Shown here in pieces: positions 14,501-43,280 of a stretch of 44,248 nt of DNA; the stretch's first letter is position 1; each line of letters opens with the position of its first letter. Made by a program: the position numbers and the translations under genes. Source of the stretch: a virus; the IMG/VR virus record IMGVR_UViG_3300011934_000011, positions 1 to 44,248 of that record; one strand, written 5' to 3'. The notes beneath the pieces are model-generated. The model worked only from the letters and a program-made list of their open reading frames with translations. It had not been told where the DNA came from and searched no databases.

Positions 14501-17500
14501 TTTCCCGCATACTGTATTTGAGACTCGCTATTTGGCGTCTCGTACAGGACAAGCCCATCCGGTGTTCTTACACCGTCAATATTATTAGGCTCAAACACCT
14601 CGCTCCACATCACTTCCATTAGATATTCATTATCGAACCCGTCTGCCGAATCAACAATGTCGTCTGGAGACAGCATTTCAACTATATCGTCAGCGGTTAT
14701 TGACTCTTGGTTTAGTTCTTTGGCAATACCGATTAGCATATCGGTATTAGCTTTTGCAGCTTCATTTATCAGATCAGTTAGCTGATCGCTGTTAACGATG
14801 ATCCCGTAATCACCGTTAGTCACCCATACGTTGCCCCCATACGATTCCAAAGAGTCGGCTGCGGTTTGTGCATCAGGGGTATCTGAATTAACGCCGACCT
14901 CCTTAAACATTGCATACCCAGCCCTAGAAAATGGCGATTTGTTTTTGTTTGTTAGGCGGATATAGCGAGCTTCTGTGGGTTTAACGCTAACCGAACCGGT
15001 TGTTTCAGTGCTCTTACCGGAAAATGCGTAGCGAGCGCCAGTTTTGCCATCTTGCTCTGCCTGCTTGCCACGCAGGTATGTCCGGCTCTGCTCACCCAAG
15101 GCCAGCACATCGGTATAGCTCCACTCCACTGTGGGGAACAACTGACGCAGGGCTGCGCGAATCTTGGCAACTAGGCGCTGCCACGTCTTAGGCCGGTGGC
15201 CTTTCTCTAGCAGGTGAGCGACCATTTCCTCGGCAATGGCGATACGGTCTTCACGCTTTGCCGGGTCAAGGAACGGGTACGCTTTGCGCACTTCGTTCAG
15301 CGCTTCGCGGCCTTGTTTGCTGTTGGGTAGGCTGCGGTATAGCGCAAGCATGGTGGTGTCGAGGGCGTTACCCAGCACGCCACGGATGCCCTTATGGCCT
15401 ACGGCTTCGTGCAAGGCTGCGCGGATACCGTCTTGTGCGTCACTGACGTTATCGGCAATAACGTAGATTTCGCCTTTGTGGTAAACGCCGCGAGCATCTT
15501 GAGGGTTGACGCCATTGCGAGCCATATCTTCCAGCACAGCATCAGGCAGGTCTTGGGCGCGCTGCAAGACATTGACGTTGCCAAGTTCAGGGTAGTCGTT
15601 GATCGCCATTTGTATAGCAATAGACGCGCTACCTTGCGGCTCTGTCTTGGATGCCAGTGAATAGCGCGGCTCGCTCTTGCTGGCTTCGGCATCAAAGGAG
15701 TTAACAGCTTCTGGCGCGGGATCACCGCCTGCTTTCTCCCAGTTGCCACGCTGTGACGGTAAGGTATAAAGCGGCCCTATCTCACTGACGGCAGCAATAA
15801 CAGCGTCTAGCTGGCTGTCAGTAAAGCGGGCCATCATGGTGCCGCCTTTTGCAAAGAAGTCGCCACCCAAGGCGCTGCGCAGACGGTTGCTGAACTTGAG
15901 CGACTTAGCGAGCGTTTCCTTGTTTGACTTGGGCACACTCATAACCCATCCGCCACTGCTTTCTGGCTGGATGCGGCCAACACTGTTCTCAGTGAATACG
16001 CCACCCACCTCTTTCAGGCTGTCGCGGTATTCGCGCATGTAGCGAGACGCCGCCTCAAGGTTGCGCATTGCTACGTTCTGCTCAGCATCCAGACCGGAAA
16101 AGGTTTTGTCGTCAAAGTTCTTAGGCATCAGCATGCCCAGGTGGGTTTGCCCATCCTTGTCCGTAAAGGCGGTAATGCGGCCTTTGTGCTTGCCTGACGC
16201 AGCTGCAATCAGGTTACCGGTCGCTACATAGCGTATCTCGCGCATGTTGGTTTCAGCGGTAGCACTGAAGATCGTGCCAAGCCCCTGTTTGCCGGACGAC
16301 TGCAACACCTCAATCAGTGCGCCATCACTATCAGATTGCAGGCGGGTTAGCGGCAACTCAATCGTTCTCACGCCGCTATTCACCATGAACCGCACTCTGG
16401 TCTTGGATAGTGCGTAGGGATTGCCCTTGCCTTCCTTATGGGTGCTGGTAAGCCCGACGACGACGCCTGTTACCTTTTCCTCTTTCAGGTCCAGGCGCAC
16501 GCGATTGCCGATAGCAAACGACTTGCCAATCATTCGCTCAACAGCGGCCTTACTTCTTTCGTATTCGCCCGGCCTTTTCTCATTGCGGTCAAGGTAGTCT
16601 TCGCGCGCATCCACCAACTTGGTAGCTTTTTCACCTAACACCTTGCCAATCTCACGCGGGTCGGTGAGGTTTAACCCTTCCTTTTTCGCCTTGGCGCGAA
16701 GCGCTGCCTCAATATCGCTAATAGAGTTTTCAATAGACTGCATTTCTTCTTGCAGCCAGTTATCTGATTCCAGCTTACTGAGGATTTTGCTGCCCTTTTC
16801 AGGGTCGGCTTTATCCAGTGTTTTCTCAACCTCGCCTGACGTTGGCGGTGTGCCCTGATACTTGCCGTCCACCTTGTGCATGTAGGTGTGACCACCAAAG
16901 ATGGTGTCAGGCGCCTTGCCTTGATACGTCACTTTGGTATCAATGATCTTGGCGTCAAGGTCCACGGTGGCGGGTTCAAGGTCGTTCTGGCCGGTCTTGT
17001 TCAGGTAGTCGATATACTGGCGGTATTCGCGCTCAATCGCCTCGTAGGCTTCGCGTTGAGCCTTTACGGGTTGCGCAGCTAGACGCCCGGTAAACCTTAA
17101 AGCAACACCGGGGTCGCCGTTGCCAGCGCTGGAATTAACCCCGGTAGCTGCTGACATACGGGGGTTTTCTTTCAGGTACTCGTTGACGATGTAATCGCCA
17201 TACTTGTTCAGTATATCCAACGCCTCAACGCTGGTATTGGATTCCGTATTGGAGCTGGTGTTGGCATTCAGCGACTTCATTTTCTTGGCGGTGTTTGCCA
17301 AGGGGCGAATCTCGGCCGGGATCGCCAAGCCCATCATGGTGTAAGACGGCTTGTTGACCTGTCCGGTGCGGTTGACGCGGCCAAGCATCTGCATCAGCAC
17401 GTTAATATCTGCCGGTGCCTGCATCATAATCATGTGGCGCGGCTTCTGATCGCTGAAACGCTCGCCCGCATGGATAGACAGGCCGGTAGAGCCTGACTTG

Positions 17501-20500
17501 TTCAGGATGATGGCATTTAGGCGGCCAGCATTGAAGTTGTCTACGGTGCCGCGTGCGTTCTTCCTTTCCTCTGCGTCACGGCGTGACAGTATCGGCGTAC
17601 CTCCTGAGTAGTCGATCATGTAGTCACGGCCAGTCAGTTCGGCAACACTAATGTCTGCCTGAACCAGCTTGTTGCGTACATGGTCGATGGGTGAGATAGG
17701 CAAGTCGCCCAGATCAAGGTTGCGGATAACCTCGGCGGCCTCTTGATAAGCCTCGCGTACAACGGGGTCTGTGTCCGATAGCGCCACGCTTTTAGTGACT
17801 TTCTCTCCATTGGGTAGCGTTTCGGTGTAACGGCGCGTACGGTCAAGGGCGCGCATCAGCACGTCTTGGTAGTTGGCATCTACCGTATCGCCTAGTTCCA
17901 AGCCAAAATCTTTGACATACTCATTCAGGAATGAGCCCATCGTGTTTTCAAGCGCCAATACAGGCTTTACGCCTTGACTGTGAAGCTCGATAGCTTGGTC
18001 AGCGGCGCGGTCCGCTTTAAGTCCAAGCAGTAGCTGAGAGATGTAGTTGTGCAGCACGCTGGTAAAGTTCTGGTGATCTAGCCCTTTACCCGCTTTGTTG
18101 CCTGCGCCTTGTGCGCTACCGCCTTGCTCTTCGGCATCGGCTTGCAATGCGCCCACAGTCAAATCGTGGAATAACTTGTCAGCCTTGGTGATGGCGCGCA
18201 GGCCTTCCGAGACTTGATCGGATAGCTTTTCGTGCAGTGCTTTATTACCGTCATCAATCGACGTTTTGATCTCGATACCTTCAAAGCTGCGCTCACGACG
18301 GAATAACTGCCCGCTGCGTGAAAGCATGTTGGAGACGACGGTTTGCAGGGGTGTGCCGCCTGTCTCTACCGCTTCAACCAGACTGTCTACGCTATCAACC
18401 GCGTCCGCTACGTCGGTGCGGTAATAGATCGGCATATTGTCTGGGCGCTTGGCGTATGTCGCTGACAGGTAGACAACAGGGTTATTTTCGATCAGGTCGT
18501 AAACAAAGCCGGCGCCCGTTATCTTCTCGACGTTCTGGCCTTTTACCTTGGCAAACTTCTTACGCTCCCCGGCAACCTCGTGAGCCTCGTCCAGCACAAA
18601 GATGGCATCTTTTGCTACCGCTTGCATAACGCGACGCTGTAGGTTGTCGGTGTTGATCTGCGAGTAGGTGAGGAATAGGGCGTCATAGCCTTCCGGCAGT
18701 CGTCCGCTCGCGGCCATGTCTTGAAGGATAGTTGTCTGCTTTTTACCCTTAGCGCTGCGGGATACTTCCTGCTCCTTCCAGCTAATCGCTACATCCTTGT
18801 TGACCACAAACGGCTTTACGTCGTGGTCGCCAATGTCGCGCAAGTCACCGTACATATCAGAAAACAGATTGTCTTTCACGGTCATAAAGACCGGCGTTTT
18901 ACCTACTTCACGCGCATAGCGGATAACAGCGGCAGCCTGACGCCCCTTGCCCAAACCGGTCTGATCGGCAATGATAACGCCCTTGCCACGCTCGATATTG
19001 CGGATTGACGCGGCAACGGCATCCACTTGAAGCCCCATAAAGGCACGGTTCATATCTTCAAGAGTGGCGTAGTTCAGTTTGTTTTTGACGTATTCATCAA
19101 TGTTGCCGACCTCGTTTTCAAGGTCGGTGAGTGCGTCCTGGGTGGGTTGTGCCATGCTGTTGGGGATCAGCACGGCATCATTAAAGCCTGCGCTTCTGGC
19201 TCGGTAGGCGGTCTGGAATTGTGATCCGCTTAGGGCTGTGCTTCCTGTAGCGCTGCCACCCACGTTTCCAGCGTTTGTTCCGCCAGCATTTCCTTGGCTT
19301 CCGGGTCTTGTGTCGGCTTGATTGCTGGGTACGACTCCATCATCCAGCTGATTTCGTCCACCATCTGCATTGCTTCGGCCATTTCCTGTGGAGACGTTAG
19401 CCCTTGGCTGGCTATTGCGTCCCCCAGTCCGGGTGCTCGCTCCAGAATCATTCGTGCGCTGCCCTCCCCGGCTTCCTCGTCCTCCGCGAGTGCCAGTTGA
19501 TACACCTTGTTGATTAGAAAGTTCATCAGCAGGGGTGCGTCCATCTGGGATTGGGTCGGGCTGACGGCTACCATCAACACTTCCTGAACGGGGGATGGCT
19601 CGTTGGGCGGCATCCAGACTGCGCTCATATTGTTCATACACTTGCTCCCATGTGTCGGCGCGCTCAATCGTGCCGGTCTTGGGGCTGATTTTATCAGACT
19701 TGACGCGGCCATTGACGGTAATCATCCGTACCGGCCAGCCTGCACCCTGGCGCTTATACAAGTCACCGTTTACTTCAAAGTGACCTACCACGTTGTAGTG
19801 GCTGTAAAGCCAGTTAAAGAACGTGCGGTCTGCTGCGCCTATCTCACCGGCTTCTTTGCTGGCACCTATAATGATAGTAGCTCGGCCATCATCTTCCAGT
19901 GCTGATAGCGCTTTGGCGGCAATCAGGTGGTCGATAGAGCTGATCTTGAAACCGTCCATTTGACGCGGCGCAAGGCGACCATCAGCATTGCGCAGTTTGC
20001 CGAATGGCGGGTTGGTAGATAGCGCGTCTACCCGCTCCTTGGGTATCCAGTCGGTTGCGTCGTACTGCGTGACGTTAAAGCCCTGATCCTTGAGGTGGGC
20101 AGCGCGACGATCATCAAGCTCGTTGACGATAGCGTTACGGGTGTCAGCACCTATAATCAGCATGCCGTTACCGGCAGTAGGCTCATAAACCCGCGTGCTT
20201 TCGTTGATTCCGGCAAGGCGCGAACCAAGGAATGCCATAGGTGCTGGCGTGCTGTACGCCTGCCTTTCCATGCTGGTCGAGCTGCGAACATCAAGGTTCG
20301 GCTGGTTTTCGTACAGCGTTAGCAGTTTGTCGTACACCTGCTTATCAGTGCCACCCTCGGCCACAATAGAGCGGGCACGACGTACCAGGGCAAGTTCGAA
20401 AGACTCTTGCGCTTCCTTCAGCAAGCCGTTGTGAACATCCGCTACCTTAATGCTGTTATATTCAGCAATCGCGCTTTTCAGCTTACGGTTGTCGGTAATG

Positions 20501-23500
20501 CTGTCGATCTGCTGATAGAGCGCATCAGCCAGAGTGCCCGGCTTACCGGTGATCGGCTCTATGGTTTCGGTGACTTCACCCTGTGGCGCGGTGTCTTGCT
20601 CAATGCTCGCCAGATCATTCATGGCTTCACGCACGGTATCGGGTGAATCCATGTCTGTTACATCGAGGCCGTTATCTTCCATCAGGTCGCGGCCACCGTT
20701 GTACCAGCTGCGCAGATAGGGGCGCAGTTCGGTAACGCTGGTGCCAAGGTCCTCGGCCATGGCTCGGGCAAACTGGCTAAACTTTCGCGCACCCGCCTCC
20801 ATGTGGAAGGCGGCCAGTTCAGCACCCAGGCTGAGCATTTCAGGGTCGAAACCGCTGTTTAGCTGGCCTAGTTTGGCGCGTAGACGGGCGCGCAATTCCT
20901 CGGCGCGGTCCTTGGATACCAGCGTGTTATCATTTCCCCAGCCTTCTTGCTTTTTGGCCTTGGTGGCTTCCTCATCTTTCTTGCGCACCTTGAAGCGTGG
21001 GCGGCGATTGTCTGCGCTGGCGGTGACACCTTGGCGTGTTGGCGTGATAGAAACGGTTTCAAAGATTCTGACGCCATCCTCCACCACAAAGCGAATACCG
21101 TTCTCATCTTCATAAACGGTTTCATTACCGACGTTTTTACCGACTTCCTTGGGCTGCTTGGCTTTTGGCTTTGGCTTATCGGCTTTAGGCTTTTTGGCTT
21201 TGCGGCTTTTCGCCTTAGCATCAAGATTAGACTTAGCGACGTTGGCAGCAAGCTCAACGTCATCGTTAAGCGCGTCGTAGGTGTCGGGGTCTTGCAGCTG
21301 CGCACGATATAGCTCAGTGACTTTCCCCTTGGCCTCGGAATCGCTACTTTCGCCCAGCACGGCGATTTCGTTCATGCGGTCGATAGCACGGTCGCGGGCA
21401 GTCTCCTTGGTGGTTTCACGCTGGCTTTCTGCATCATTCTGCACGCTTTCTGCATTCTGCGTAACGCTGTTATAAGCTGCTTCGATCTCGCTGAAGCCAA
21501 GCTCATCAACCCTGTTTAGCAATGTGTTTCTTTCTGCTTTGCGCGGTACGGCCTTGCCTGCGTTGCGTAGCATTTGCTTTAACTGGTTATCGCTAAGCCC
21601 TTTTAGTGCCGCATAGCGGTCTGCAATTATTGGGTTTGAGTCAGGTTCTCTGTTATCGCTAAATGTTGGGTTTGGGCCGCTGCCAAAACCTTGCTTCATG
21701 TCGTTGTTAGCAGTTGCTGCTGCTTCAGCAACTACTTCAAGCGCCGCTCCGTCATCTTCGCTTATGCGGGATAAAGCGCGGGCTACATCAGATTGCGGCG
21801 CGCCATACTCGATTGCGTCACGTATCGCACTACTTGCCCAAGTTGGAGCGTTTTCTTGAAGCTCGTTGATAGCCTGTTCGCGCTCTTCAATGCTGGCGTA
21901 AGGGTTTTGTGTGGATTGCCCTGAGGCGGCAGTATCAGGCTGCGCCCCAAGCAAGTCGTTCTGCCCCTGCGCGGCGGCAAGGTCAGCGCTGCTGTTACTG
22001 CCGGCAAGGGTGAAGTCGTCTACCTCGGCGTCTGCTTGGGCGCGCTGCTCTTCATCGCGTATGCGGGCTTGCTCGGCGGCTTCGGCTTCCTGCTGCTGGC
22101 GGTCACGGTCGGCAAGCTCGGCCTCGGTGTAGCTGTTGAGTAGCGGTTCTACTTCTGCGGTAGTTGCAGACCCTTGGGTAAGTTCAGTTTCTCCCCCTTG
22201 GGTAAGCGCTTGTTCGTCTCGTTGAGTGATTCCTGAAACATCGGCTTCAGGCGAGCGTTGTCCTTGCACCTGATCTTGATTTTGGAAGCTGGCATCGAAA
22301 ATATCCTCATTGGTTGTTGTATCTTCAAACAGGGCGCCGTTGACTTCACTTTCAGCGCGATTGCGAACGCTGCGTGCCACGTCGGTCAGCGCATTGGTCA
22401 TCGCCTGACGGCTGCGCATGCTGTTGTTGATGGCCAGCGCTAGATCAGCGGTGGATTCCGGGATTGCATCGCTAAAGGCATCTGTCTGGCGTACCAATTC
22501 ACGAACGCTTGTACCGCTTCGGCGTGACTCACGTACCAAGCGCACGGCATCGGTAATAGTGTTGATGGCGTCTTGCGCGTCACGGCTACCTGTTTCCCGG
22601 GCGGCGGCAATGTCGGGTGCTGCTGCCTGAAGCCCTGCGGTCAGGTTACGCATGTTATCGGACTGCTCCGTGACCATTTCCACCATATCGGCGTCCTGGT
22701 ACGCGGCAGCAAAGATAGCGCGCTGCATCCGCTGGCCAAGCTCCGGCGTTGCTTGCCCTTCTCGATTAGTGTAGCGGCTGGCTTCGTTATTGCCCAGGCT
22801 GCGCACAAAATTACGCTGGAAGTCGCGGTTACTGGCCGCCAATGGGTCGCCGCTTTGATCCGGCGCCCATGCTTGAATATCCTGCGCTGTCAGGCTATCT
22901 GCGTCAGCTTGCGCCTGTTCGTAGCTGGTCATGCCTGCAACACTGCTTTCATTGGCACGGCGGGCAAAGTCGGCACGGTCTACGCTGGTGGTTCGTTCGC
23001 GCACCAGTACCGGCTGCTGCATCTCATCCACGGCGGTTGGGTCAATACCCTGTCGTTCGGCCTCGCTGCGCACGTACTCGCGGTAGCGCTGTGCTTGCGG
23101 GCTGTTCTGGCTGTAGGCGGTGCTGATTGCCATGGTGCGGCCATTACCAGACTCCACCACGCCATCATTACCGACAATGGGTGCGCCGGTGCTGGCGTCG
23201 GTGCTTGGGCCAAGGCGCTCCGGGTTTAGGCGGCTGGTAATGTTGCGCACCTGCACTTGGCTGTTGGCGTTGGTGCGGTCGCGGGGCTGTAGTTCTTGCG
23301 GGTAACGGGGATTAACGCGCCCATCCTGTGTATTGGATGGCGTTAGCTCGCTGGCTTCCATGACGCGGAATCGGGTCTTGATCGGCGTATTGTCGGGCAG
23401 GTAGGTAGTTTCACTCTTGCCGCGTGTGCGTGCCGTCTGAGCGGAAGCCTTGGCCTGTGTCTGTTGCTGGGCGCGACGACTCTCTACGGCACCACGGGCG

Positions 23501-25623
23501 CCGGTATCGGTGAAGCGAGCATTGGGGAAGGATTGGTCTAGCCCGGTATTAGCGTTACCAGCGGTCGGGCCATCGCCGTAAATTGTGCCGTCTTGGCCGA
23601 TACGGCGGGCGCTGTCTTGGCGTAACCGGTCAGGCTGGCGGTTTAGTTCACCGTCGAAGGTGTCGCCTTGGCGGTTGGCTTGACCGGGCAGTGGGTCACG
23701 GCCAACGTATTCGCCATCAAGGCCGGTATTCTGTGCTGTGCCGAATTGGCGCTCAAAGGCTGCGCGGCGGGCTTCTTGCTCTGCGTCAAAGTCGCGGGTC
23801 GGGCCATCACCATAGATAACATCATCGCGGTCAATGCGACGACGGTTAAGAATATCGTCCTGTTCCTGCCGCGCACGTTGGCGAGCATCAAACTGTGCGG
23901 GCGACTCACCTGCAATGCTGTCACCAGTGCCGGGTGGTAGTTGGCCACGGCGGCCTTCAAGTCGCGGCGTCGGGCCCTGATCTTCTTCACGGCCTACAAA
24001 ATCACCTTCGGCGGGGCGTTCACGGGTGCCAGCGGTGCGCAAGGCAGTGCGTAGATTATTGCCGATACGCTCAGCCTGTGCCATCAGGCGGCTGGCTTGC
24101 TCGATGTTGCCGTTCTCAAGGGCTGCTTCGGCGCGTTCGGTAATCTTCGCCATGTTGCGCAGGCGGGCAGTGCCTTCAAAACTAGCACCACGGGCAATGG
24201 TTTGCAGGTCGTCAACGTCCTGTAAGCCGCGCTGGATACGCAGACCGACATCACCGGCCTGTTGCTGACGCCCTGCTTGTGCCAGCGGGTCTTGCTCTGC
24301 TGACTGGCGACGGCTTTCAGATTCCTGTTCGGCAGCTTGTGCGGCGCGTGTCTGGTCGAGCGGATCACCACCTTCAGCCTCAGTTCTGCGGCGAGCTTCG
24401 GCGGCGGCTGCTGCGGTATCTTCCTCCGGTGGCGTTTGGTCACGGCGTGGGCGTCCAGCCAGTGCGCCAGTACCACCACCCATGACGCTACCAATCAAGC
24501 CTTCAGACAGGCCGGCAGCGGCCACCCCTTCCATCGGGTTGCGGTCAGGGTCTACACCAATGTCAGCGATTGCAGTGTTGGTGGCATACTTGCCTGTACC
24601 GCCTTGCCCGGTTTCGACAACGCCTTGCACGACGGCTTGCTGAGCGGCTGCGCCTAAACGCCCGCGCCCAGCGCCGGTGCCTTTGGTTACAATGTCGTCA
24701 AGCGCCTTGCCGCCATAACCACCCAGCACGGCATTGGTCAGCAATAGCGCTGGGTCACGCATGACGAGGCTCTTGGCGCCTTCGGCCATTTCTTCCCGGG
24801 CAGCCTGACGCAATTCGCTAACGCTGGTGTCTGGGTTCTCACCCGCCAGCTTCCAGTAAAGCTCTTGATAAGCGACCGACTGATCCAGTTCTTCATTGGG
24901 CATGCCCATAACTTCAAGGCGCGCACCATCAGCAATCTGGCCAGTATTGACCGCCATTTCAGTGGCGCCATACGTGCCCAGCATGACGCCGTTGGCTGTG
25001 CTTGATTTCAGGAAGTCATCGGTTGCTTTGACGGCGGCGGCACGTTGACCTGCTTCATCCAGCCCCTGCTTGACTGCGTTGCGCTTTGCTTGCCCACCAA
25101 TGATGCGACCTGTCAGGCTTAAAGCCGCCCTTGAGCCACCGCCCGCAATACCACCAGACGTTACCGCCTCACCTGCTAGGCTCGCTGTTTGCAGGGCAAT
25201 AGTGCGAAGGTTGAAGCCTTCACCCATCTTGAAGTCAGTCAGCCCTGAGCCGGTGCTTTCAAAGATCGGTTGACGGATAGCCTTGGCAGATTCTGGCGTC
25301 ATGGTTTCAAGCTGACGCGCTGCACCCTCGCGGCCAAAGTTGCCCAAACCACGACCGTAGCCGGTAAACTCGTAAGCGAAGTCACCCAAACCTTGCGCGA
25401 CGTTATAAGCACCCTGTTGCCCGGCGTCTACCAGGTCGCCAAGCATGCCGCTATTGCGGTCGGGGTCGCTGCTAGTGTCGGGGGTGCCGTAAACCTGAGC
25501 GTTAAAGTCCTGCTCGGAAAGCTGTTGAAACTCTGGTTTTCTGCGCAACGATTGAGCAATCTCTTGATCGCTGTAGTTTTTCAGGTTGGGGTTTTTCTGG
25601 CGAAGTTCGTCAATAATGCTCAT
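11530..25623 (-). CDS. Giant polyvalent virion protein (ParB-like, N6-MTase, helicase, zincin, LPD38-like)
   Basis: A 4697-residue protein, one third of the window. In order: Gly/Ala-rich hydrophobic helices (55-400); low-complexity linkers with repeated YGDGPT; a ddrB-type ParB-like domain near 750-1000 (SNTQDGRVNPRYP, VVESGNGRTMAI); an N6-adenine methylase near 1700-1960 (VYEPTAGNGML; STNPPFG near 1872); a Gly/Asn linker; a Strawberry-notch-type SF2 helicase near 2130-2800 (TGLGKG ~2224, LDEAHE ~2346, GRVNRTGQ ~2749); a zincin with HEAVGH at ~3407; an AT-rich module at 3530-3722; and a C-terminal LPD38-like region from about 4150. Polyvalent proteins of this type, such as P1 DarB, are packaged and injected to shield DNA from restriction. 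Being last in the ejection-protein cluster fits. The SD sits in a GNRA hairpin. Confidence 0.92.
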   Translation of the reverse strand: MSIIDELRQKNPNLKNYSDQEIAQSLRRKPEFQQLSEQDFNAQVYGTPDTSSDPDRNSGMLGDLVDAGQQGAYNVAQGLGDFAYEFTGYGRGLGNFGREGAARQLETMTPESAKAIRQPIFESTGSGLTDFKMGEGFNLRTIALQTASLAGEAVTSGGIAGGGSRAALSLTGRIIGGQAKRNAVKQGLDEAGQRAAAVKATDDFLKSSTANGVMLGTYGATEMAVNTGQIADGARLEVMGMPNEELDQSVAYQELYWKLAGENPDTSVSELRQAAREEMAEGAKSLVMRDPALLLTNAVLGGYGGKALDDIVTKGTGAGRGRLGAAAQQAVVQGVVETGQGGTGKYATNTAIADIGVDPDRNPMEGVAAAGLSEGLIGSVMGGGTGALAGRPRRDQTPPEEDTAAAAAEARRRTEAEGGDPLDQTRAAQAAEQESESRRQSAEQDPLAQAGRQQQAGDVGLRIQRGLQDVDDLQTIARGASFEGTARLRNMAKITERAEAALENGNIEQASRLMAQAERIGNNLRTALRTAGTRERPAEGDFVGREEDQGPTPRLEGRRGQLPPGTGDSIAGESPAQFDARQRARQEQDDILNRRRIDRDDVIYGDGPTRDFDAEQEARRAAFERQFGTAQNTGLDGEYVGRDPLPGQANRQGDTFDGELNRQPDRLRQDSARRIGQDGTIYGDGPTAGNANTGLDQSFPNARFTDTGARGAVESRRAQQQTQAKASAQTARTRGKSETTYLPDNTPIKTRFRVMEASELTPSNTQDGRVNPRYPQELQPRDRTNANSQVQVRNITSRLNPERLGPSTDASTGAPIVGNDGVVESGNGRTMAISTAYSQNSPQAQRYREYVRSEAERQGIDPTAVDEMQQPVLVRERTTSVDRADFARRANESSVAGMTSYEQAQADADSLTAQDIQAWAPDQSGDPLAASNRDFQRNFVRSLGNNEASRYTNREGQATPELGQRMQRAIFAAAYQDADMVEMVTEQSDNMRNLTAGLQAAAPDIAAARETGSRDAQDAINTITDAVRLVRESRRSGTSVRELVRQTDAFSDAIPESTADLALAINNSMRSRQAMTNALTDVARSVRNRAESEVNGALFEDTTTNEDIFDASFQNQDQVQGQRSPEADVSGITQRDEQALTQGGETELTQGSATTAEVEPLLNSYTEAELADRDRQQQEAEAAEQARIRDEEQRAQADAEVDDFTLAGSNSSADLAAAQGQNDLLGAQPDTAASGQSTQNPYASIEEREQAINELQENAPTWASSAIRDAIEYGAPQSDVARALSRISEDDGAALEVVAEAAATANNDMKQGFGSGPNPTFSDNREPDSNPIIADRYAALKGLSDNQLKQMLRNAGKAVPRKAERNTLLNRVDELGFSEIEAAYNSVTQNAESVQNDAESQRETTKETARDRAIDRMNEIAVLGESSDSEAKGKVTELYRAQLQDPDTYDALNDDVELAANVAKSNLDAKAKSRKAKKPKADKPKPKAKQPKEVGKNVGNETVYEDENGIRFVVEDGVRIFETVSITPTRQGVTASADNRRPRFKVRKKDEEATKAKKQEGWGNDNTLVSKDRAEELRARLRAKLGQLNSGFDPEMLSLGAELAAFHMEAGARKFSQFARAMAEDLGTSVTELRPYLRSWYNGGRDLMEDNGLDVTDMDSPDTVREAMNDLASIEQDTAPQGEVTETIEPITGKPGTLADALYQQIDSITDNRKLKSAIAEYNSIKVADVHNGLLKEAQESFELALVRRARSIVAEGGTDKQVYDKLLTLYENQPNLDVRSSTSMERQAYSTPAPMAFLGSRLAGINESTRVYEPTAGNGMLIIGADTRNAIVNELDDRRAAHLKDQGFNVTQYDATDWIPKERVDALSTNPPFGKLRNADGRLAPRQMDGFKISSIDHLIAAKALSALEDDGRATIIIGASKEAGEIGAADRTFFNWLYSHYNVVGHFEVNGDLYKRQGAGWPVRMITVNGRVKSDKISPKTGTIERADTWEQVYEQYERSLDAAQRAIPRSGSVDGSRQPDPIPDGRTPADELSNQQGVSTGTRGGRGSRGGQRTNDSGASTRTGGRNSQPRANVSTGNGRSNADGGRNQLDDGVVPSNQADTRPGSQGNAGGTNAGNVGGSATGSTALSGSQFQTAYRARSAGFNDAVLIPNSMAQPTQDALTDLENEVGNIDEYVKNKLNYATLEDMNRAFMGLQVDAVAASIRNIERGKGVIIADQTGLGKGRQAAAVIRYAREVGKTPVFMTVKDNLFSDMYGDLRDIGDHDVKPFVVNKDVAISWKEQEVSRSAKGKKQTTILQDMAASGRLPEGYDALFLTYSQINTDNLQRRVMQAVAKDAIFVLDEAHEVAGERKKFAKVKGQNVEKITGAGFVYDLIENNPVVYLSATYAKRPDNMPIYYRTDVADAVDSVDSLVEAVETGGTPLQTVVSNMLSRSGQLFRRERSFEGIEIKTSIDDGNKALHEKLSDQVSEGLRAITKADKLFHDLTVGALQADAEEQGGSAQGAGNKAGKGLDHQNFTSVLHNYISQLLLGLKADRAADQAIELHSQGVKPVLALENTMGSFLNEYVKDFGLELGDTVDANYQDVLMRALDRTRRYTETLPNGEKVTKSVALSDTDPVVREAYQEAAEVIRNLDLGDLPISPIDHVRNKLVQADISVAELTGRDYMIDYSGGTPILSRRDAEERKNARGTVDNFNAGRLNAIILNKSGSTGLSIHAGERFSDQKPRHMIMMQAPADINVLMQMLGRVNRTGQVNKPSYTMMGLAIPAEIRPLANTAKKMKSLNANTSSNTESNTSVEALDILNKYGDYIVNEYLKENPRMSAATGVNSSAGNGDPGVALRFTGRLAAQPVKAQREAYEAIEREYRQYIDYLNKTGQNDLEPATVDLDAKIIDTKVTYQGKAPDTIFGGHTYMHKVDGKYQGTPPTSGEVEKTLDKADPEKGSKILSKLESDNWLQEEMQSIENSISDIEAALRAKAKKEGLNLTDPREIGKVLGEKATKLVDAREDYLDRNEKRPGEYERSKAAVERMIGKSFAIGNRVRLDLKEEKVTGVVVGLTSTHKEGKGNPYALSKTRVRFMVNSGVRTIELPLTRLQSDSDGALIEVLQSSGKQGLGTIFSATAETNMREIRYVATGNLIAAASGKHKGRITAFTDKDGQTHLGMLMPKNFDDKTFSGLDAEQNVAMRNLEAASRYMREYRDSLKEVGGVFTENSVGRIQPESSGGWVMSVPKSNKETLAKSLKFSNRLRSALGGDFFAKGGTMMARFTDSQLDAVIAAVSEIGPLYTLPSQRGNWEKAGGDPAPEAVNSFDAEASKSEPRYSLASKTEPQGSASIAIQMAINDYPELGNVNVLQRAQDLPDAVLEDMARNGVNPQDARGVYHKGEIYVIADNVSDAQDGIRAALHEAVGHKGIRGVLGNALDTTMLALYRSLPNSKQGREALNEVRKAYPFLDPAKREDRIAIAEEMVAHLLEKGHRPKTWQRLVAKIRAALRQLFPTVEWSYTDVLALGEQSRTYLRGKQAEQDGKTGARYAFSGKSTETTGSVSVKPTEARYIRLTNKNKSPFSRAGYAMFKEVGVNSDTPDAQTAADSLESYGGNVWVTNGDYGIIVNSDQLTDLINEAAKANTDMLIGIAKELNQESITADDIVEMLSPDDIVDSADGFDNEYLMEVMWSEVFEPNNIDGVRTPDGLVLYETPNSESQIQYAGNLDDFFEGDTENPDIRYSLRSGTPSDFTANFDDMTAEDAEAASKIGPRTRRQTIMDKWREMTTGLGLRLRQGMVDQVAALNEMDNARFGKEVTDDNIAQRSWILARLSNAANGALGAMLNNGRVYLDAQDKVIDVKDDGSTGLASVFAKLGNLDDPKKGGAEVQRFMGWIAGNRADKLRSQGRENLFTDDDIDRMKDWDRGTLPDGRNRAEVYQEAFNEFQQYRDDVLAIAEQSGLLKPAMDEVGAAFALAKQYNLQQTLKDNLRQAKQAAEQEGDPLRQDAADQRLGAAISDIIDAAAAKEGDQTVIDAQMQDYMTSQRDLWKDEFYVPFYRLKEESTENSIMPATQGLSRQQAYKRLKGGTENVNDLLQNTMMNFHHLLDASLKNQAATQAMDNALELGIAEQVPADTKSKQKTFIMRDGQQVHYEVNDPMVFSAVTALAHPGMNSTLMRVLRKFKRMFTNLTTSTPQFQLANLIRDAVQATATSDVSKNALKNVLQGTRSYKDQKTRARMMASGGAFNFGHVFDGSPAEIREQLTKTMQGARLIDRPSKLFDIRYVWNKWMDFNNFTENVNRAAIYQQNMDAGRSKLYSAFESRDLIDFSARGAWPAVRILIDVVPFLNARIQGLDKIYRSGFKPTGNVMMEAFGQGQAGVTDKQAAGRFWAVTGAVTLATIALYLHNKDDEEYEKLEQWHRDTYWWFRIGDAAISIPKPFEVGAIATIAERVTEQFADDEATGKLFAQRMGHMMTDTFSFTAVPQAVQPAYNIYANRDDFTGRPIESMGMDRLSPELRRRGSTTAPATGISKLLNSTVGAIGKSEDNPLALSPVQVDHLIQGYFGQVGAWVAGIGDGAWQWSQGKTNPAQKIYERQPIRRFYTNLGLEDKYTRYGTVFYEGLREAQRAYSDVKELRELGRLEEAMETQQDQRSMLAIRKALNRTQSRLRTLKSQEEIIRRSDMPPEVKRQRIDRLRTIRNQLQRVAGKRIEQARVN
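14440..15030 (-). other. AT-rich module inserted in the giant gene
   Basis: Residues about 3530-3722 of the giant protein are encoded by DNA clearly richer in A+T than the rest of the gene. The module runs from after GARYAFSG to NPDIRYSLR and is acidic, with GVRTPDGLVLYETPNSESQIQYAG near its end. That ending resembles the closing strands of ADP-ribosyltransferase-like polyvalent domains, but the match is by eye. The composition step and the RYS-type borders suggest recent acquisition as a domain cassette. Confidence 0.5.
19230..19637 (-). CDS. Overprinted gene inside the giant gene's linker
   Basis: A second reading frame on the same strand as the giant gene encodes 135 residues from ATG 19637, with GGGAG seven bases upstream. 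The product is acidic and Met-rich with amphipathic helices (LLMNFLINKVYQLALAEDEEAG, ARMILERAPGLGDAIASQGL, PQEMAEAMQMVDEISWMMES, LAEQTLETWVAALQEAQ). In the giant frame the same DNA gives a low-complexity Gly/Asn/Arg/Ser linker between methylase and helicase, as expected if the embedded frame is the constrained one. Other alternate-frame ORFs in this gene look like random sequence. Function unknown; the acidity allows a DNA-mimic or chaperone idea, as guesswork. Confidence 0.5.
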   Translation of the reverse strand: MNNMSAVWMPPNEPSPVQEVLMVAVSPTQSQMDAPLLMNFLINKVYQLALAEDEEAGEGSARMILERAPGLGDAIASQGLTSPQEMAEAMQMVDEISWMMESYPAIKPTQDPEAKEMLAEQTLETWVAALQEAQP

Positions 25624-38399: not shown

Positions 38400-38601
38400 A
38401 ATAGTCGGTAAAGGGGGTTATGTCTGGCGGTGACTCGTCGCTGGCGTCTGTTAGCAAGTCATCAATCACGCGAATCTCGCCGCGTAGCTTGTCGTCTGCT
38501 TGGGTGCCGTTGATTAACGACTCGATGCACTGCTGTCGGCGCTCATTCAACCAGACTTCGACGGCTTGCCACGTCAGCGTATGCGTATCAATATCAGCCA
38601 T
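38398..38601 (-). CDS. Small acidic protein after portal, 67 residues
   Basis: ATG 38601 overlaps the last codons of the portal gene. The product (DTHTLTWQAVEVWLNERRQQCIESLINGTQADDKLRGEIRVIDDLLTDASDESPPDITPF) has two helices, the second part acidic. Small helical proteins at this position between portal and scaffold are common in podoviruses; role unknown. A terminator begins at its stop. Confidence 0.65.
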   Translation of the reverse strand: MADIDTHTLTWQAVEVWLNERRQQCIESLINGTQADDKLRGEIRVIDDLLTDASDESPPDITPFTDY

Positions 38602-40945
38602 AGGAGTCGTATCCTTGCGCCATGTTGTCACGGCGGGCCAAGCGGTCATTCTGCTTTTCGGTCAGCTCGGCGGCTTTCACATCGCGTTGGTTCTGCAGTT
38701 GGGCGCTTGTCTTACGCATTTCCAATTCCAGCTTCTGCGACTCAAGCCCCGCCTTCTGCTCAAGTTGCGTCAGTGTCAACCCTTCCTTGAGTGCCAGTTC
38801 GGTACGCTTCATTTCCTGATCGCTTTGCAGCTGCGCGGCCTTGTACTGCTGGTCAAACTGCTGTTGCTGCGCTTTCAGTTGCGCTTCCTGCTGGCTCATT
38901 TGCGCTTCCTGTTGCCATTGCTGGGCTTTCAGCTGCAACTCTTGCTGCTTCAGCTGCAATTCCTGCATCTTCACCTGCATTTCGGGTGGCGGGCCTTCTT
39001 CCTGCTGGCCTTGCTGTTTCTGCGCAATCTCTTCCTCGCTGTACGTCACGGTATCCACCGGCACTTGCAGCGTGCGCAGTATTTCCTTGTACAGTCCTTC
39101 CCAGTTGGTTAGCTCGGCAAAGATCGGGTTATTCGCGGCCACCTGAGCCAGCATCATCAGCTTTTCCTGCTGCTCTTCGCGGGCAATCAGCACACTCGTA
39201 CCCTTGGCCACTACATCAAAGTCGCCCTTGATCTCTGGCCGGTCGGTGTACTCCATGTGAAAATCGTAGAAGCGCTTAACCGTGGGCGTGCTAATACCGT
39301 CATCGAAGTTCTTGACGGCTGAGCGCAACACGATGTTGCTGTTGTTCATCAGCATCTGCATACCGGTTGCTGTATTCGCTCCCGGTCCACCACTGACGCC
39401 CTCACCCTGTAGCAGGATAGGCAGATTGGTTTCAGTGTCGGCCAACTGCTGTGCCATCTCGAAGATAGAAGCTAGATCGCCCTGGTTGTTCTGTATCTGT
39501 ACGCTAAGGAACGCCTGGTCTATCGGCGCGTCTCCGGTGTACTCCCACACCTTATTGCTGCGTATCGTCCAGTCACCGTCTTTCGGCTGTACTGCGCGCT
39601 TGTTGACGACAATTTGCGGGCCTGCGGATAACCCAGCGTTATCCATCATCATGCGCCATGCGGCGTTGACGACCTTTTGCGGCTGACGCATGAGGTAAGG
39701 CACGCCAAAGCCGAAGATGCTCGCGCCGTCCTCTTCCCAGTTGAATATGCTGTAGGGTAGCTGCCCGGATTCCAGCGGGTTCATTGCCGCTTTGATAACG
39801 TGGCTGCCTACCATCAACACGCAGCCAGTGTATTCCACCAGCGGGTCATCGTCGGTTTCACAGCCACAGGCATCCAACTCTTCTTTGTCGAGTGGCCCCC
39901 AGTATTCCCAGACTTCATAACGCTTATCGTTGGTGACAGTATCGACGCCGGTGATAGCGCGCAGTTCGTCGCGTCTGTCCTGTGCAACGTGCCGGGCGTC
40001 ATCGTCTTGCAGTGCCTGACGTAACTGATCTTTCATCACACCGGGTAGGTCGGCAAGCTCGCGCAGCTGCTTGCGGTTGAGTAGCTTGCGTTCAAACACA
40101 AACTCAGCTTCGCGCATGTTCGCGGCTGACATATCCGGGAAGTAATCCCACGGATCAACGCGCTCAACAGCGGGCCGGAACTCTTCCTGCACCTCAACGA
40201 ATGATTGCCCTGTCTGCGGGTCGGTCATCCATGCGCGGCGAGTGCGATTAACAATACTCGGGCCTTTGAGAATGCCAGTGCCGAGTATGCAGGCATCTTG
40301 AATCACGTCGCGGGTATGAGCGTTGTAGCGTGACTCTGCGAAGTCGTCCTCTATCTGCTGCTGCATCTCCCTTGCAGCTTCATCGACCTTGGCCTGCTCG
40401 TCTATCTCTGGCTCAGGCTGTTGTTGTGGCTGCATACCCTGCTGCTGCATGCCTTCTTGTGGCATAGCTTGCGGCTGCTGGTTCTGTTGTTCGGGTGCCA
40501 TGCTTTGTTGCATATCTGGCGATTGGCCGGGCTGCTGCATGTCCGCCTGCATCATTCCCTGCACTTTGCTTGTTGCAGGTACGGGCGTGGACTTGATGCC
40601 GAAGTTGGTATCGTCGTTAGGTAGCAGCATATCGCTCAAGCGAGCAATCGCGGCGCGTGTCTTGTTGCGGGTAATATTGACGTAGACCGAACTGCCGCCC
40701 TTGCGCTGCATGCGGTCCAGTTCGTCGCCGTTGTACTTGCCGTTGTACTGGCGTAGATCAGCGAGCCACCGGGTTTCAATCTGTTGGCGCGCCGCTACTT
40801 GATCGTGTGCCAAGCCGTATAGCTTACTGCCCAGCACGTTGAGCTCTTCTTCCTGTTGCTGCTTGAGCGCTTCACGCTCTTCAGCGTCCATATCGTCAGT
40901 AGGGTCTTGCTCGTCTGCCATCACGGCAGTCGGATTGTCTCGCAT
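38594..40945 (-). CDS. Portal protein, P22-like, 783 residues
   Basis: The dodecameric ring for DNA entry. Landmarks: the N-terminal helix region, YVNITRNKTRAAIARLSDMLLP (about 90-110), VERVDPWDYFPDMSAANMREAEFVFERKLLNRKQLREL, INWEEDGASIFGFGVPYLMRQPQKVVNAAWRMMMDNAGLSAGPQIVV, and QGEGVSGGPGANTATGMQMLMNNSNIVLRSAVKNFDD. The last 150 residues are a long Gln/Glu coiled coil that would form a P22-like barrel. A Gln/Met/Pro-rich insert at about 128-180 is unusual. AGGA seven bases before ATG 40945. It follows the terminase genes directly. Confidence 0.92.
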   Translation of the reverse strand: MRDNPTAVMADEQDPTDDMDAEEREALKQQQEEELNVLGSKLYGLAHDQVAARQQIETRWLADLRQYNGKYNGDELDRMQRKGGSSVYVNITRNKTRAAIARLSDMLLPNDDTNFGIKSTPVPATSKVQGMMQADMQQPGQSPDMQQSMAPEQQNQQPQAMPQEGMQQQGMQPQQQPEPEIDEQAKVDEAAREMQQQIEDDFAESRYNAHTRDVIQDACILGTGILKGPSIVNRTRRAWMTDPQTGQSFVEVQEEFRPAVERVDPWDYFPDMSAANMREAEFVFERKLLNRKQLRELADLPGVMKDQLRQALQDDDARHVAQDRRDELRAITGVDTVTNDKRYEVWEYWGPLDKEELDACGCETDDDPLVEYTGCVLMVGSHVIKAAMNPLESGQLPYSIFNWEEDGASIFGFGVPYLMRQPQKVVNAAWRMMMDNAGLSAGPQIVVNKRAVQPKDGDWTIRSNKVWEYTGDAPIDQAFLSVQIQNNQGDLASIFEMAQQLADTETNLPILLQGEGVSGGPGANTATGMQMLMNNSNIVLRSAVKNFDDGISTPTVKRFYDFHMEYTDRPEIKGDFDVVAKGTSVLIAREEQQEKLMMLAQVAANNPIFAELTNWEGLYKEILRTLQVPVDTVTYSEEEIAQKQQGQQEEGPPPEMQVKMQELQLKQQELQLKAQQWQQEAQMSQQEAQLKAQQQQFDQQYKAAQLQSDQEMKRTELALKEGLTLTQLEQKAGLESQKLELEMRKTSAQLQNQRDVKAAELTEKQNDRLARRDNMAQGYDSYG

Positions 40946-40946
40946 A

Positions 40947-41669
40947 TCAGTATCCTGCCGTGGTGTCGCCGGGTTGTGAGCCAGCGCCTATTTGCTGTAT
41001 GGGTTTGGTGGTGGCGTTATGTAAGCCCATCACCATGTACCTAATTCCATCGAGACAATGATCGTTTTCTTTTACAATCTTGCCCTTTTCGTCGCGCCGA
41101 TAAATCCGGAACTCGCCCAGCGTGTGCTGTAGCGTGCTGAATATCTTGATACGCCCGGTGCTTAGCCGCTCTAGTACCTGCATCAAGCCCGACTCTACCG
41201 CCTTGTTGGCTTTGATTAGGTGTAAGCCCTCGTCTTCGTACAGCGACCACAACGAACGCCCATCAACCTGACTACGCCCACGCGCTGCGGTATCAATCAC
41301 GCCGGGTATCCACTCACCGCGCATCCTGATGGCTTTCGCATGTACAGCGGCCTCAGCCTGCCCCCGGTAATGCTCCGAGTACAGATAAAGCACGTCGGTA
41401 TCACGGTCGAGCGCACCCCAGACGGCGGCGGTTTTCTTCCAGCCAACGTCGAGGCCATAGATACGCGGCCACCAGCCGGGAATCTGAAACGGGTCGCAGA
41501 CAATATCTTCTTCCGGCACCGGGTAGATGGCACCACTACCCAGCGTGGGCGTGCCATTCATGCGCGCTTCCAGCTGGTGGGGGCTGATACCCTTGGCCAT
41601 ATCGTCTATGTCCTCTTGCTTGAGGTGGGGCGCGTTACTCCATCCAGCTTGTACGACGTAACGGCTCAC
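40947..41669 (-). CDS. terL: Terminase large subunit, nuclease half
   Basis: A 240-residue protein equal to the C-terminal part of a normal TerL. The RNase H-fold nuclease acids are present: Asp74 in YGLDVGW, Asp126 in GVIDTAARGRSQ and Asp207 in HCLDGIRY. It starts at GTG 41669, overlapping the previous stop as GTGA, and its first residues (SRYVVQAGWSNAPHL) match the point where intact TerL proteins continue after the ATPase domain. It should cut concatemers during headful or cos packaging, presumably in complex with the separately encoded ATPase half. Confidence 0.88.
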   Translation of the reverse strand: MSRYVVQAGWSNAPHLKQEDIDDMAKGISPHQLEARMNGTPTLGSGAIYPVPEEDIVCDPFQIPGWWPRIYGLDVGWKKTAAVWGALDRDTDVLYLYSEHYRGQAEAAVHAKAIRMRGEWIPGVIDTAARGRSQVDGRSLWSLYEDEGLHLIKANKAVESGLMQVLERLSTGRIKIFSTLQHTLGEFRIYRRDEKGKIVKENDHCLDGIRYMVMGLHNATTKPIQQIGAGSQPGDTTAGY

Positions 41670-41887
41670 TGTGCCATCACCATGAACTGCGCCCCTGCAA
41701 TCGTCAGCGTGTCACCAGTGCTTAGCGTAGGGTCTACCTGCCGCGCTACTTTGACTGACAGCATGCCGCCCTCAATGCCGCGCTCTCGCACCATGTCGGC
41801 AATACGCTTGGCTGTGGCCGTCGTGCGGTTCTGGTACTTGGCGCTGACGCTGCCCGCCAGGTAGTCGCCTTGGATGGGGTCTGTCAT
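41666..41887 (-). CDS. ORF wedged between the two terminase halves, 73 residues
   Basis: It begins with MTDPIQGDYLAGSVSAKYQN and ends in a GDTLTIAGAQFMVMAQ strand pair. Starts are coupled at both ends: ATGA with the ATPase half and GTGA with the nuclease half. The three genes use three different frames. I do not recognise the family. The helix with NRTTATAKRIADMVRERG and the closing GD-L-I-G-F-V strands resemble small head-tail joining proteins, which are often encoded near here, so a displaced connector gene is one reading. It is not intein-like: no Cys/Ser start or His-Asn end. Confidence 0.65.
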   Translation of the reverse strand: MTDPIQGDYLAGSVSAKYQNRTTATAKRIADMVRERGIEGGMLSVKVARQVDPTLSTGDTLTIAGAQFMVMAQ

Positions 41888-42600
41888 ACCGGCTCCTGCT
41901 CATGTTTGGATTCAAGAAAGCTGACGACCAGTTCCGTCAAGCCGGATAGCGGGGTAAACGTCATCATCACAATGCCGCGTGTGGTCATCGTCCTGATCAG
42001 GGCTTCGTCGTACACGTCTTTGGGCACTTCTTCATCCAGCCACACCACGTCCTGCTCGGTGCCCTGGAAGATACGGCGCCCTTGGTCATAGCTGCGCAGC
42101 ATCAATCGGCTGGTGCCACCGCTGGCATGGCTGACGTTGATCTCTTCGTAAAGGTTGGCAACGCCGCGTGCTGGTGTCGGCTTGCCCAGCTTGTCGCGGG
42201 GGATCAGGCCACTGCCGAACTCCGGTGTATCCCATAGACCGCCAAGCAGCTTAGCCTGGATAATGTCGCGGGTTGTCTGCGAGGTGTCGCCAGCAGCCAA
42301 GGCATTGATCGGCTTATTGAACGTGCGGCCATCCCACCAGTCGGGATACTCGCCAGTTAAGTGATACGTTAGCTCGCCACCACCTGCGACTGTCTTGCCG
42401 ACGCGGTTGCCTGCCATGAATAGCCGCTCTTTGTGCTCGCGGCCTGCGCGAAAAAACTCCATGTGTTTAACGTACAGCTCACGCCGGTACGGGCCTTCGT
42501 CGGGGAAGATGTCGCGGATTAGGTTGTAGCGTTTCCGCCTCGCCTTTTCCTCAAGCGCTTTGAGTAGCGCGAGTTGCGCGGCACGGTTATCACTGCTCAC
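41884..42600 (-). CDS. terL: Terminase large subunit, ATPase half
   Basis: A 238-residue packaging motor domain. Walker A is GNRVGKT (64-70) and Walker B VVWLDEE (185-191) with the catalytic Glu; the coupling motif TFTPLSG (215-220) is intact. The protein stops shortly after, at SFLESKHEQEPV, in the linker where TerL normally runs on into the nuclease. Start is GTG 42600, overlapping the small terminase stop. So ATP hydrolysis and cutting are on separate chains here. Two compensating indels alone would not create the extra 222 bases. Confidence 0.9.
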   Translation of the reverse strand: MSSDNRAAQLALLKALEEKARRKRYNLIRDIFPDEGPYRRELYVKHMEFFRAGREHKERLFMAGNRVGKTVAGGGELTYHLTGEYPDWWDGRTFNKPINALAAGDTSQTTRDIIQAKLLGGLWDTPEFGSGLIPRDKLGKPTPARGVANLYEEINVSHASGGTSRLMLRSYDQGRRIFQGTEQDVVWLDEEVPKDVYDEALIRTMTTRGIVMMTFTPLSGLTELVVSFLESKHEQEPV

Positions 42601-43144
42601 CGCCCACCTTCTTGCTCAGCTCAGCAATGCGGGCTTCAAGCTCGTCGTCGGTCAGGCTGCGCTCTGCTGGTTCGTCGGCTTTGTCGTCGTCGTCCATCGA
42701 GTAAGCCTGGCGCTCTAGCTTGATGCACTTACCTAAAGCATCCACACCAGAGTTAAGGCTTCGAGCAAACTCATTGTGGTTCGACTCGTCTACATTCATC
42801 TCGCTCAGCGTGACGGCCAGCTTTGTGGCAATGCCTTTCCATTCAGTGATCTGCTTGCGATGACCAACGACTACTTGGGTGATCTCGTCTGAAACTTCAT
42901 CAACTATCTCGTCATCGTTTCGCGCATCCGCTTGCGTGACGCCTTTGCGTGAAGTCGTGCGTGATAGCTTCTGTTTTGCAGCACTCTTAACTTGCCTTGA
43001 AAGGTCGCGGTGCCAGCCGTATTTTTTTGCTCGGCTGCGTATCGTTCCTTCCTTCGTGCCGTATTTATCGGCAATAGCGCGTAGTGGCAATAAGCCAGCC
43101 CGATAGGCGGCTTCAATGCTCTCCCAATCGGGTATCTTAGCCAT
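42590..43144 (-). CDS. terS: Terminase small subunit
   Basis: A 184-residue protein. The N-terminal helix-turn-helix (DWESIEAAYRAGLLPLRAIADKYGTKEGTIRSRAKKYGWHRDL) binds the packaging site; a central helical oligomerisation part (DEVSDEITQVVVGHRKQITEWKGIATKLAVTL) and a C-terminal acidic TerL-binding tail follow. The start at ATG 43144 abuts a seven-T tract of a terminator-like hairpin and has no good Shine-Dalgarno, so it may depend on coupling to the 47-codon ORF that overlaps it. It is followed by TerL with a short overlap. Confidence 0.85.
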   Translation of the reverse strand: MAKIPDWESIEAAYRAGLLPLRAIADKYGTKEGTIRSRAKKYGWHRDLSRQVKSAAKQKLSRTTSRKGVTQADARNDDEIVDEVSDEITQVVVGHRKQITEWKGIATKLAVTLSEMNVDESNHNEFARSLNSGVDALGKCIKLERQAYSMDDDDKADEPAERSLTDDELEARIAELSKKVGGEQ

Positions 43145-43280
43145 AAAAAAACGCCGCTCTCTCAAGCAGCGCCCTCATAGTGTAGGGGCCGGACGCTTCA
43201 CAGCGTGCGGCGGGTTGTCGGCAGTGCTTCACAGCATGACCTACCGCGTAGCGTTGCGCGGTACGCAGATCGAGGATCAC
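43137..43280 (-). CDS. Possible leader ORF overlapping terS, 47 residues
   Basis: GTG 43280 has GGAGAGG seven bases upstream and itself lies in GGAGGTGATC, a full complement of the 16S rRNA 3' end. The frame stays open to 43137, past the terS start. The peptide contains CRQPAARCEASGPYTMRALLERAAFFYG. It reads through two of the repeated hairpins in different frames and through the terminator-like stem, so it may be a leader peptide that couples translation to terS. Chance cannot be excluded. Confidence 0.35.
   Translation of the reverse strand: MILDLRTAQRYAVGHAVKHCRQPAARCEASGPYTMRALLERAAFFYG
43145..43171 (-). terminator. Terminator-like hairpin touching the terS start codon
   Basis: On the minus strand CGCTGC/GCGGCG (6 bp, one T-G pair) with an 8-nt loop is followed by seven T and then directly by ATG of terS. 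It would attenuate terminase and structural genes unless ribosomes or an antitermination factor prevent the hairpin. Confidence 0.65.

What the first reader, a model, noticed from the sequence alone, without database searches (positions are those of the whole stretch)
40947..42600. Terminase large subunit split into ATPase and nuclease cistrons
The motor domain (Walker A/B intact) and the RNase H nuclease (three Asp intact) are encoded by separate genes in different frames, cut precisely in the inter-domain linker. Both parts look functional and are translationally coupled through a third ORF. A two-chain packaging motor would be an unusual natural separation of the two activities.
Basis: partly seen in the sequence, partly recalled or inferred. 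Interest (0 to 1): 0.74.

Follow-up and report, generated by a model that had tools for sequence, protein, structure and literature searches.

The report
DNA-packaging motor made in two pieces
In this phage and a large group of its relatives the enzyme that pumps DNA into the virus shell is encoded as two separate genes, cut between the ATP-burning core and its lever-like lid, and the gap between them has become a parking place for small extra genes.

Summary
Confirmed and extended, with one correction. The window (an IMG/VR virus record) has TerS, ATPase ORF (42600-41884), a 73-aa ORF (41887-41666), nuclease ORF (41669-40947) and portal, with 4-base overlaps (ATGA, GTGA). It is not an assembly error: of 221 related loci holding both halves, 100 are split, including prophages of cultured isolates such as Kushneria aurantia DSM 21353, Neptunomonas marina and Sphingopyxis flava. 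No intron family, no slippery site and no room for a trans-splicing intein was found. Both halves are under strong purifying selection and keep their catalytic residues. It lies about 50 residues earlier, inside the ATPase domain, between the ASCE core and the lid, so the second chain is lid plus nuclease. The third ORF is cargo: relatives lack it, or carry other genes there (HNH, GIY-YIG, a Tad2-like anti-defence gene, tail genes) from 0.13 to 5.3 kb. Most likely two chains assemble into one motor, as in known 'genes-in-pieces' phage enzymes. I found no report of this for a terminase in the papers searched. New variant of a known kind.

The parts
42590..43165 (-). terminase small subunit (TerS) gene
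   Evidence: phrog_1206 terminase small subunit, E 9e-41
41884..42600 (-). terL piece 1: ASCE ATPase core, 238 aa, GTG start
   Evidence: Terminase_6N E 7.5e-17, phrog_31467 E 5e-70; conserved in alignment A4
42391..42414 (-). Walker A AGNRVGKT (residues 63-70)
   Evidence: N65, R66, G68, K69 invariant in 26 split relatives
42028..42036 (-). Walker B acidic end / catalytic Glu DEE (residues 189-191)
   Evidence: invariant in A4
41950..41961 (-). motif III TFTP (residues 214-217)
   Evidence: T216, P217 invariant in A4
41884..41887 (-). ATGA overlap: stop of piece 1 / start of middle ORF; AGGAG just upstream
   Evidence: sequence; AGGAG position
41666..41887 (-). middle ORF M, 73 aa, cargo gene of unknown function
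   Evidence: homologues at the junction in 29 loci, no Pfam/PHROG/PDB fold match
41666..41669 (-). GTGA overlap: stop of M / start of piece 2
   Evidence: sequence
40947..41669 (-). terL piece 2: ATPase lid + linker + RNase H nuclease, 240 aa, GTG start
   Evidence: Terminase_6C E 2e-7; P22 nuclease 4dkw E 1e-34 with the A1 profile
41544..41669 (-). lid segment (residues 1-42 of piece 2), belonging to the ATPase domain
   Evidence: D6E alignment, lid/linker limits in PMC5727402, PDB domain limits on the L050 model
41004..41543 (-). RNase H-like nuclease domain (residues 43-222), D74, D126, D203/D207
38594..40945 (-). portal gene directly downstream
   Evidence: phrog_1216 portal, SU10_portal

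Best explanation
This is a natural two-chain terminase large subunit. Shown: one terL reading frame has been divided, in this lineage and in others, in the surface loop between the ASCE ATPase core (Walker A/B, motif III) and the lid. Piece 2 carries lid, linker and RNase H nuclease. Both pieces are conserved and under purifying selection, and no other copy of this terminase is in the record. In the isolates checked, each genome has only the one pair. Inferred: the two chains are made from one mRNA (termination-reinitiation at ATGA/GTGA here) and associate without a covalent link into the packaging ring, the lid docking on the ATP site from the second chain, so that packaging and cutting work as in an ordinary TerL. 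Because the junction is no longer inside a gene, it accepts and trades cargo genes; the 73-aa ORF M is this phage's cargo, not a connector. Homing endonucleases may have caused some of the splits, as in other phage genes-in-pieces.
For: 100 split against 121 one-frame loci, including prophages of cultured isolates. Tree of 116 rows: about 10 changes of state, shuffled mean 39; the window lies in an all-split clade of 18 rows, another has 20. Several relatives of the window's clade have a direct ATGA junction and no cargo (L042, L087, L090-L092). dN/dS of both pieces about 0.03-0.16 in nearly all informative pairs. Catalytic and lid residues are the same in split and intact forms. Residues around the cut are not lost: TFTP to Trp is 35 residues (median) in intact forms and 25+9 in split ones. 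Domain limits from PDB constructs. No intron family. Overlap windows of 4-10 nt without a slippery site in L067, L092, L099, L119, L198. Cargo includes Endonuclease_7, HNH, T5orf172 and Tad2-like genes. One pair only in six isolate genomes. Precedents: phage split enzymes that reassemble (PMC2988022).
Against: No protein-level data: assembly, ATPase activity and virion production are not shown for any member. The lid's contacts with ATP and the P-loop arginine in solved structures are within one chain, so a trans lid must dock unaided. Piece 2 of the window has no clear Shine-Dalgarno site. The locus counts are biased by the queries used to collect them.
Confidence: 0.8

Rival explanations
1. 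The pieces are rejoined after or during expression: RNA splicing, programmed frameshifting or protein trans-splicing gives a normal one-chain TerL.
For: terL is spliced from group I introns in ICP1 (PMC10448857) and Jug phages (PMC12363816). Relatives carry inteins inside either piece.
Against: No Rfam intron in the window or in 15 relatives, most with cargo. At least 24 relatives have only a 4-base overlap, so there is nothing to splice out. Shared open frame of 4-10 nt and no slippery heptamer in five relatives; overlaps of -4 and -8 would need frameshifts in different directions. Piece 1 ends about 25 residues after TFTP and piece 2 starts about 9 residues before the lid Trp, leaving no room for split-intein halves.
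Confidence: 0.07
2. The split marks a decaying or defective terminase; these are dead prophages or satellites using another packaging motor.
For: The window is a metagenomic record of unknown completeness, and many relatives are prophages.
Against: Strong purifying selection on both pieces across deep branches. All-split clades span Halomonadaceae, Vibrio, Endozoicomonas and Alphaproteobacteria. Intact TerS, portal, major head protein, lysis genes and integrase in the window and no other terminase.
Confidence: 0.08
3. Sequencing or assembly error (a false frameshift) in this record.
For: A single metagenomic contig.
Against: Same arrangement in 100 other loci from independent isolates and metagenomes; a 73-aa ORF with relatives sits in the gap.
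Confidence: 0.01
4. The 73-aa product is a structural third subunit that bridges ATPase and nuclease chains.
For: Its relatives occur in 29 loci at the junction; dN/dS below 1.
Against: Split relatives without it, or with unrelated cargo, are common. It evolves several times faster than the pieces. In L006 it is frame-shifted while both pieces stay open.
Confidence: 0.12

Closest known systems
Single-chain TerL of P22, D6E, P74-26, Sf6 and T4 (gp17)
   Same: ASCE motifs, lid, linker and RNase H nuclease in the same order; the intact relative model aligns with these structures; the nuclease matches P22 4dkw.
   Different: Here the chain is cut between ASCE core and lid and encoded by two genes.
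Phage genes-in-pieces: Aeh1 nrdA split by mobE, T4 topoisomerase gene 60 split by mobA, gene 43 of Aeromonas phage 25 (PMC2988022)
   Same: An essential enzyme encoded as two polypeptides that must reassemble; the start/stop overlap resembles the nrdA/mobE UAAUGA arrangement.
   Different: The enzyme is the terminase. Many junctions have no endonuclease at all, and the split is the rule over whole clades with changing cargo.
terL split by group I introns (ICP1, PMC10448857; Jug phages, PMC12363816)
   Same: terL seen as two or more ORFs in the genome.
   Different: Those are rejoined by RNA splicing; here no intron is found and many relatives have only a 4-base overlap.
TerL with inteins (cyanophage Mic1, PMC7156551)
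   Same: Interrupted terL; inteins occur in both pieces in some relatives of this window.
   Different: Inteins are removed by protein splicing; the junction here holds no intein.
PHROG families of partial terminases (phrog_31467, phrog_5653, phrog_30463)
   Same: Short families matching only one piece each.
   Different: phrog_31467, the ATPase piece, is listed as unknown function; the pairing is not recorded there.

Membership tests
Terminase large subunit (TerL) | Walker A with P-loop arginine, Walker B/catalytic Glu, motif III | tested here: met
   AGNRVGKT, DEE, TFTP invariant in 26 aligned ATPase pieces
Terminase large subunit (TerL) | Lid subdomain after the ASCE core | tested here: met
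   Present at the start of piece 2
Terminase large subunit (TerL) | RNase H-like nuclease with acidic metal ligands | tested here: met
   Terminase_6C, 4dkw match, D74, D126, D203 invariant
Terminase large subunit (TerL) | TerS upstream and portal downstream | tested here: met
Terminase large subunit (TerL) | ATPase and nuclease in one polypeptide | tested here: not met
   Separate ORFs in different frames; no joining mechanism found. Works like a TerL, but not one-chain
Genes-in-pieces by homing endonuclease insertion | Homing endonuclease ORF in the junction | tested here: not met
   Window: M has no endonuclease match. Met in relatives L021, L054, L124
Genes-in-pieces by homing endonuclease insertion | Pieces assemble into an active enzyme | not testable with these tools
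   Needs co-purification and activity tests
Group I intron-split terL | Group I intron between the exons | tested here: not met
   No Rfam match in window or 15 relatives; many relatives have no intervening sequence
Split-intein TerL | Intein halves at the C end of piece 1 and N end of piece 2 | tested here: not met
   Only about 25 and 9 residues flank the cut

The most novel reading that the evidence does not exclude
Across a broad group of podovirus-like phages the packaging motor runs with its ATP-burning core and its lid-nuclease lever as separate proteins. Breaking the chain there turned the inside of an essential gene into an exchangeable site that takes up cargo (homing nucleases, anti-defence genes, tail genes) and lets the two halves be inherited apart.
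Probability: 0.6. Interest if true: 0.75.

Novelty: new variant of a known kind. Interest (0 to 1): 0.62.

Why it matters
Models of viral DNA packaging assume that ATP hydrolysis in the core moves a lid on the same chain. A functional motor cut exactly there would show that this covalent hinge is not needed, and would give a natural two-component system in which ASCE core and lid-nuclease can be mixed, mutated and titrated separately. It also matters for annotation: the ATPase half is filed as 'unknown function' in PHROGs, so terL-based surveys that expect one chain can miss or misplace these phages.

Tried and rejected
Sequencing error: rejected by 100 split relatives. Introns: no Rfam family. 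Frameshifting: no slippery sites apart from one distant TTTTTTC in L087; several overlap windows of 4-10 nt. Apparent second split of the ATPase near Walker A in L013, L020-L022, L027, L037: an insert starting GNR-CITPWT; the reading as an intein is by sequence only, Pfam did not report an intein domain in L013 or L076. Apparent nuclease break in L022/L028: an intein (Intein_splicing). Shine-Dalgarno statistics at the start of piece 2 did not separate split from intact loci. Function of M: Pfam, PHROGs, phages, viral contigs, AlphaFold model (pLDDT 66.6) and PDB fold search (best E 0.2) gave nothing. ATPase piece against PDB sequences: no match; the fold comparison of L050 did better. Portal and TerS neighbours could not be scored in distant loci because the queries are too divergent. 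No paper describing a two-gene terminase large subunit was found; the library lacks most subscription journals.

Full report
What is in the sequence. The window is an IMG/VR virus record of 44,248 bases. On the minus strand it reads TerS (43165-42590), an ATPase ORF (42600-41884, 238 aa), a 73-aa ORF called M here (41887-41666), a nuclease ORF (41669-40947, 240 aa) and portal (40945-38594). The ORF junctions are ATGA and GTGA overlaps of four bases. The ATPase ORF matches Terminase_6N (7.5e-17) and phrog_31467 (5e-70). The nuclease ORF matches Terminase_6C (2.1e-7) and terL PHROGs. M matches nothing. No other terminase is present. The rest of the record holds a RecE-like exonuclease, integrase, major head protein, tail fibre, amidase and holin, as expected of a temperate phage.

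Is it an error? No. I collected relatives of the nuclease from viral contigs and from bacterial genomes and classified every locus that holds both halves. In 100 loci the halves are separate ORFs; in 121 they are one frame. These counts are raw, include near-copies and depend on the queries used. Split loci include prophages of cultured isolates: Halomonas sp. McH1-25 (L086), Kushneria aurantia DSM 21353 (L087), Chromohalobacter canadensis (L088), Litchfieldella xinjiangensis (L089), Vibrio galatheae (L090), Endozoicomonas arenosclerae (L091), Neptunomonas marina (L092), Sphingopyxis flava (L094), Azospirillum agricola (L100), Fulvimarina endophytica (L135) and others. In six isolate genomes checked there is one copy of each half and no other.

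How old and how often. A tree of 116 dereplicated rows (58 split, 58 intact) needs about ten changes of state, with at least three forced by well-supported branches, against a mean of 39 for shuffled labels. The window lies in an all-split clade of 18 rows (Halomonadaceae, Vibrio, Endozoicomonas, Neptunomonas and viral contigs). A second all-split clade of 20 rows is mainly alphaproteobacterial. The tree cannot tell splits from re-fusions.

Where the cut is. The profile of piece 2 aligns its positions 10-37 with residues 202-229 of D6E TerL and positions 42-215 with the whole P22 nuclease domain. In D6E the inter-domain linker is residues 230-241 and the lid precedes it (PMC5727402). An AlphaFold model of the intact relative L050 (pLDDT 91) aligns with ATPase-only crystal constructs of P74-26 and T4 up to residues 288-291, and with nuclease-only constructs from residues 288-292. 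Piece 2 of the window corresponds to L050 with an offset of 246, so its first 42 or so residues are the ATPase lid, and the cut falls in the loop 235-248. Intact forms have a median of 35 residues from motif III to the lid tryptophan; split forms have 25 + 9. Nothing is lost: the loop is simply divided.

Are the halves rejoined? Rfam finds no intron in the window or in 15 relatives, most of them with cargo. Most splits without cargo have only a 4- or 8-base overlap, so there is nothing to splice out. For frameshifting, the downstream frame must be open upstream of the stop. In L067, L092, L099, L119 and L198 it is open for only 4-10 nt, with no slippery heptamer. There is no room at the cut for split-intein halves. 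Two separate chains are therefore the best reading. It remains an inference until proteins are seen.

Selection. Pairwise dN/dS (Nei-Gojobori) is about 0.03-0.16 for both pieces in nearly all informative pairs; two pairs give up to 0.25. For M it is about 0.1-0.7. The catalytic and lid residues invariant in intact relatives are the same in split ones.

The junction as a cargo site. About 36 split loci have the halves adjacent (-8 to +9 nt); in 63 the gap is 133 bp to 5.3 kb and mostly coding on the same strand. M relatives occupy it in 29 loci. Other contents are Endonuclease_7 (L021), HNH (L124), T5orf172 GIY-YIG (L054), a Tad2-like anti-Thoeris domain (L082), MotA/ExbB (L230) and a tail-fibre-like protein (L052). 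Phage MW202785 has a 46-aa ORF there with ATGA overlaps on both sides; to my eye it resembles the end of an AP2-type HNH endonuclease, but Pfam gave no match. Relatives of the window's clade (L042, L087, L090-L092) have a direct ATGA junction, so M probably entered an already split gene. M's role is unknown.

Halves inherited apart. The window's ATPase piece groups with L011/L013/L014/L015 (support 94/97). The nuclease tree does not place it there (p-AU 0.032, group chosen after seeing the first tree), and L011-type nucleases carry a 2-residue deletion that the window lacks. L016 and L037 have ATPase dS 0.18 but nuclease dS 1.30. This suggests recombination at or near the junction; the evidence is moderate.

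Mechanism. Most likely: one mRNA, translation of piece 1, reinitiation through M, then piece 2; non-covalent docking of lid-nuclease on the ASCE core; a ring that packages and cuts like an ordinary TerL. Shown: gene structure, conservation, cut position, lack of joining signals. Inferred: reinitiation, assembly and activity. Origin: homing endonucleases are plausible for some lineages, because they sit in the junction in several, but no endonuclease is present in the window.

Comparison with the known. Phage genes-in-pieces are known (Aeh1 nrdA, T4 topoisomerase, gene 43; PMC2988022), and so are intron- or intein-interrupted terL genes (PMC10448857, PMC12363816, PMC7156551). I found no report of a terminase large subunit encoded as two independent genes, nor of a cut between ASCE core and lid, in the open-access library. 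That library is incomplete. Verdict: a real and lineage-wide feature, a new variant of a known kind.

Noticed in passing
L013, L020, L021, L022, L027, L037, L076 (ATPase piece): An insert of roughly 300 aa sits inside Walker A (GNR^CITPWT...), intein-like by sequence, though Pfam reported no intein domain for L013 and L076.
   Followed up: partly
L022, L027, L028, L030, L032 (nuclease piece), and window 41055-41057: An intein (Intein_splicing) interrupts the nuclease after KENDH in L022 and L028. The window has no intein but is the only intein-free allele seen with Cys at that +1 position (DHC instead of DHL), a possible footprint of intein loss.
   Followed up: partly
window 11530-25623: A single ORF of 4,697 aa fills about a third of the record, a giant virion-type protein as in some podoviruses; not analysed.
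   Followed up: no
L082:3274-3729 and L008, L013, L030, L031, L036 junctions: A Tad2-like anti-Thoeris domain, and in five loci an 80-85 aa family with the motif LPEWGGYW of unknown function, lie between the terminase halves.
   Followed up: partly
window 41884-41900: The C-terminal EQEPV of the ATPase piece is encoded CAGGAGCCGGTATGA, which places AGGAG before the next start; many relatives keep EQEPV, so the tail may be conserved as a ribosome site.
   Followed up: no
L121, junction of 5.3 kb: In Bradyrhizobium sp. dw_78 the two halves are separated by 5.3 kb with ORFs on both strands; this could be a degraded or rearranged prophage.
   Followed up: no
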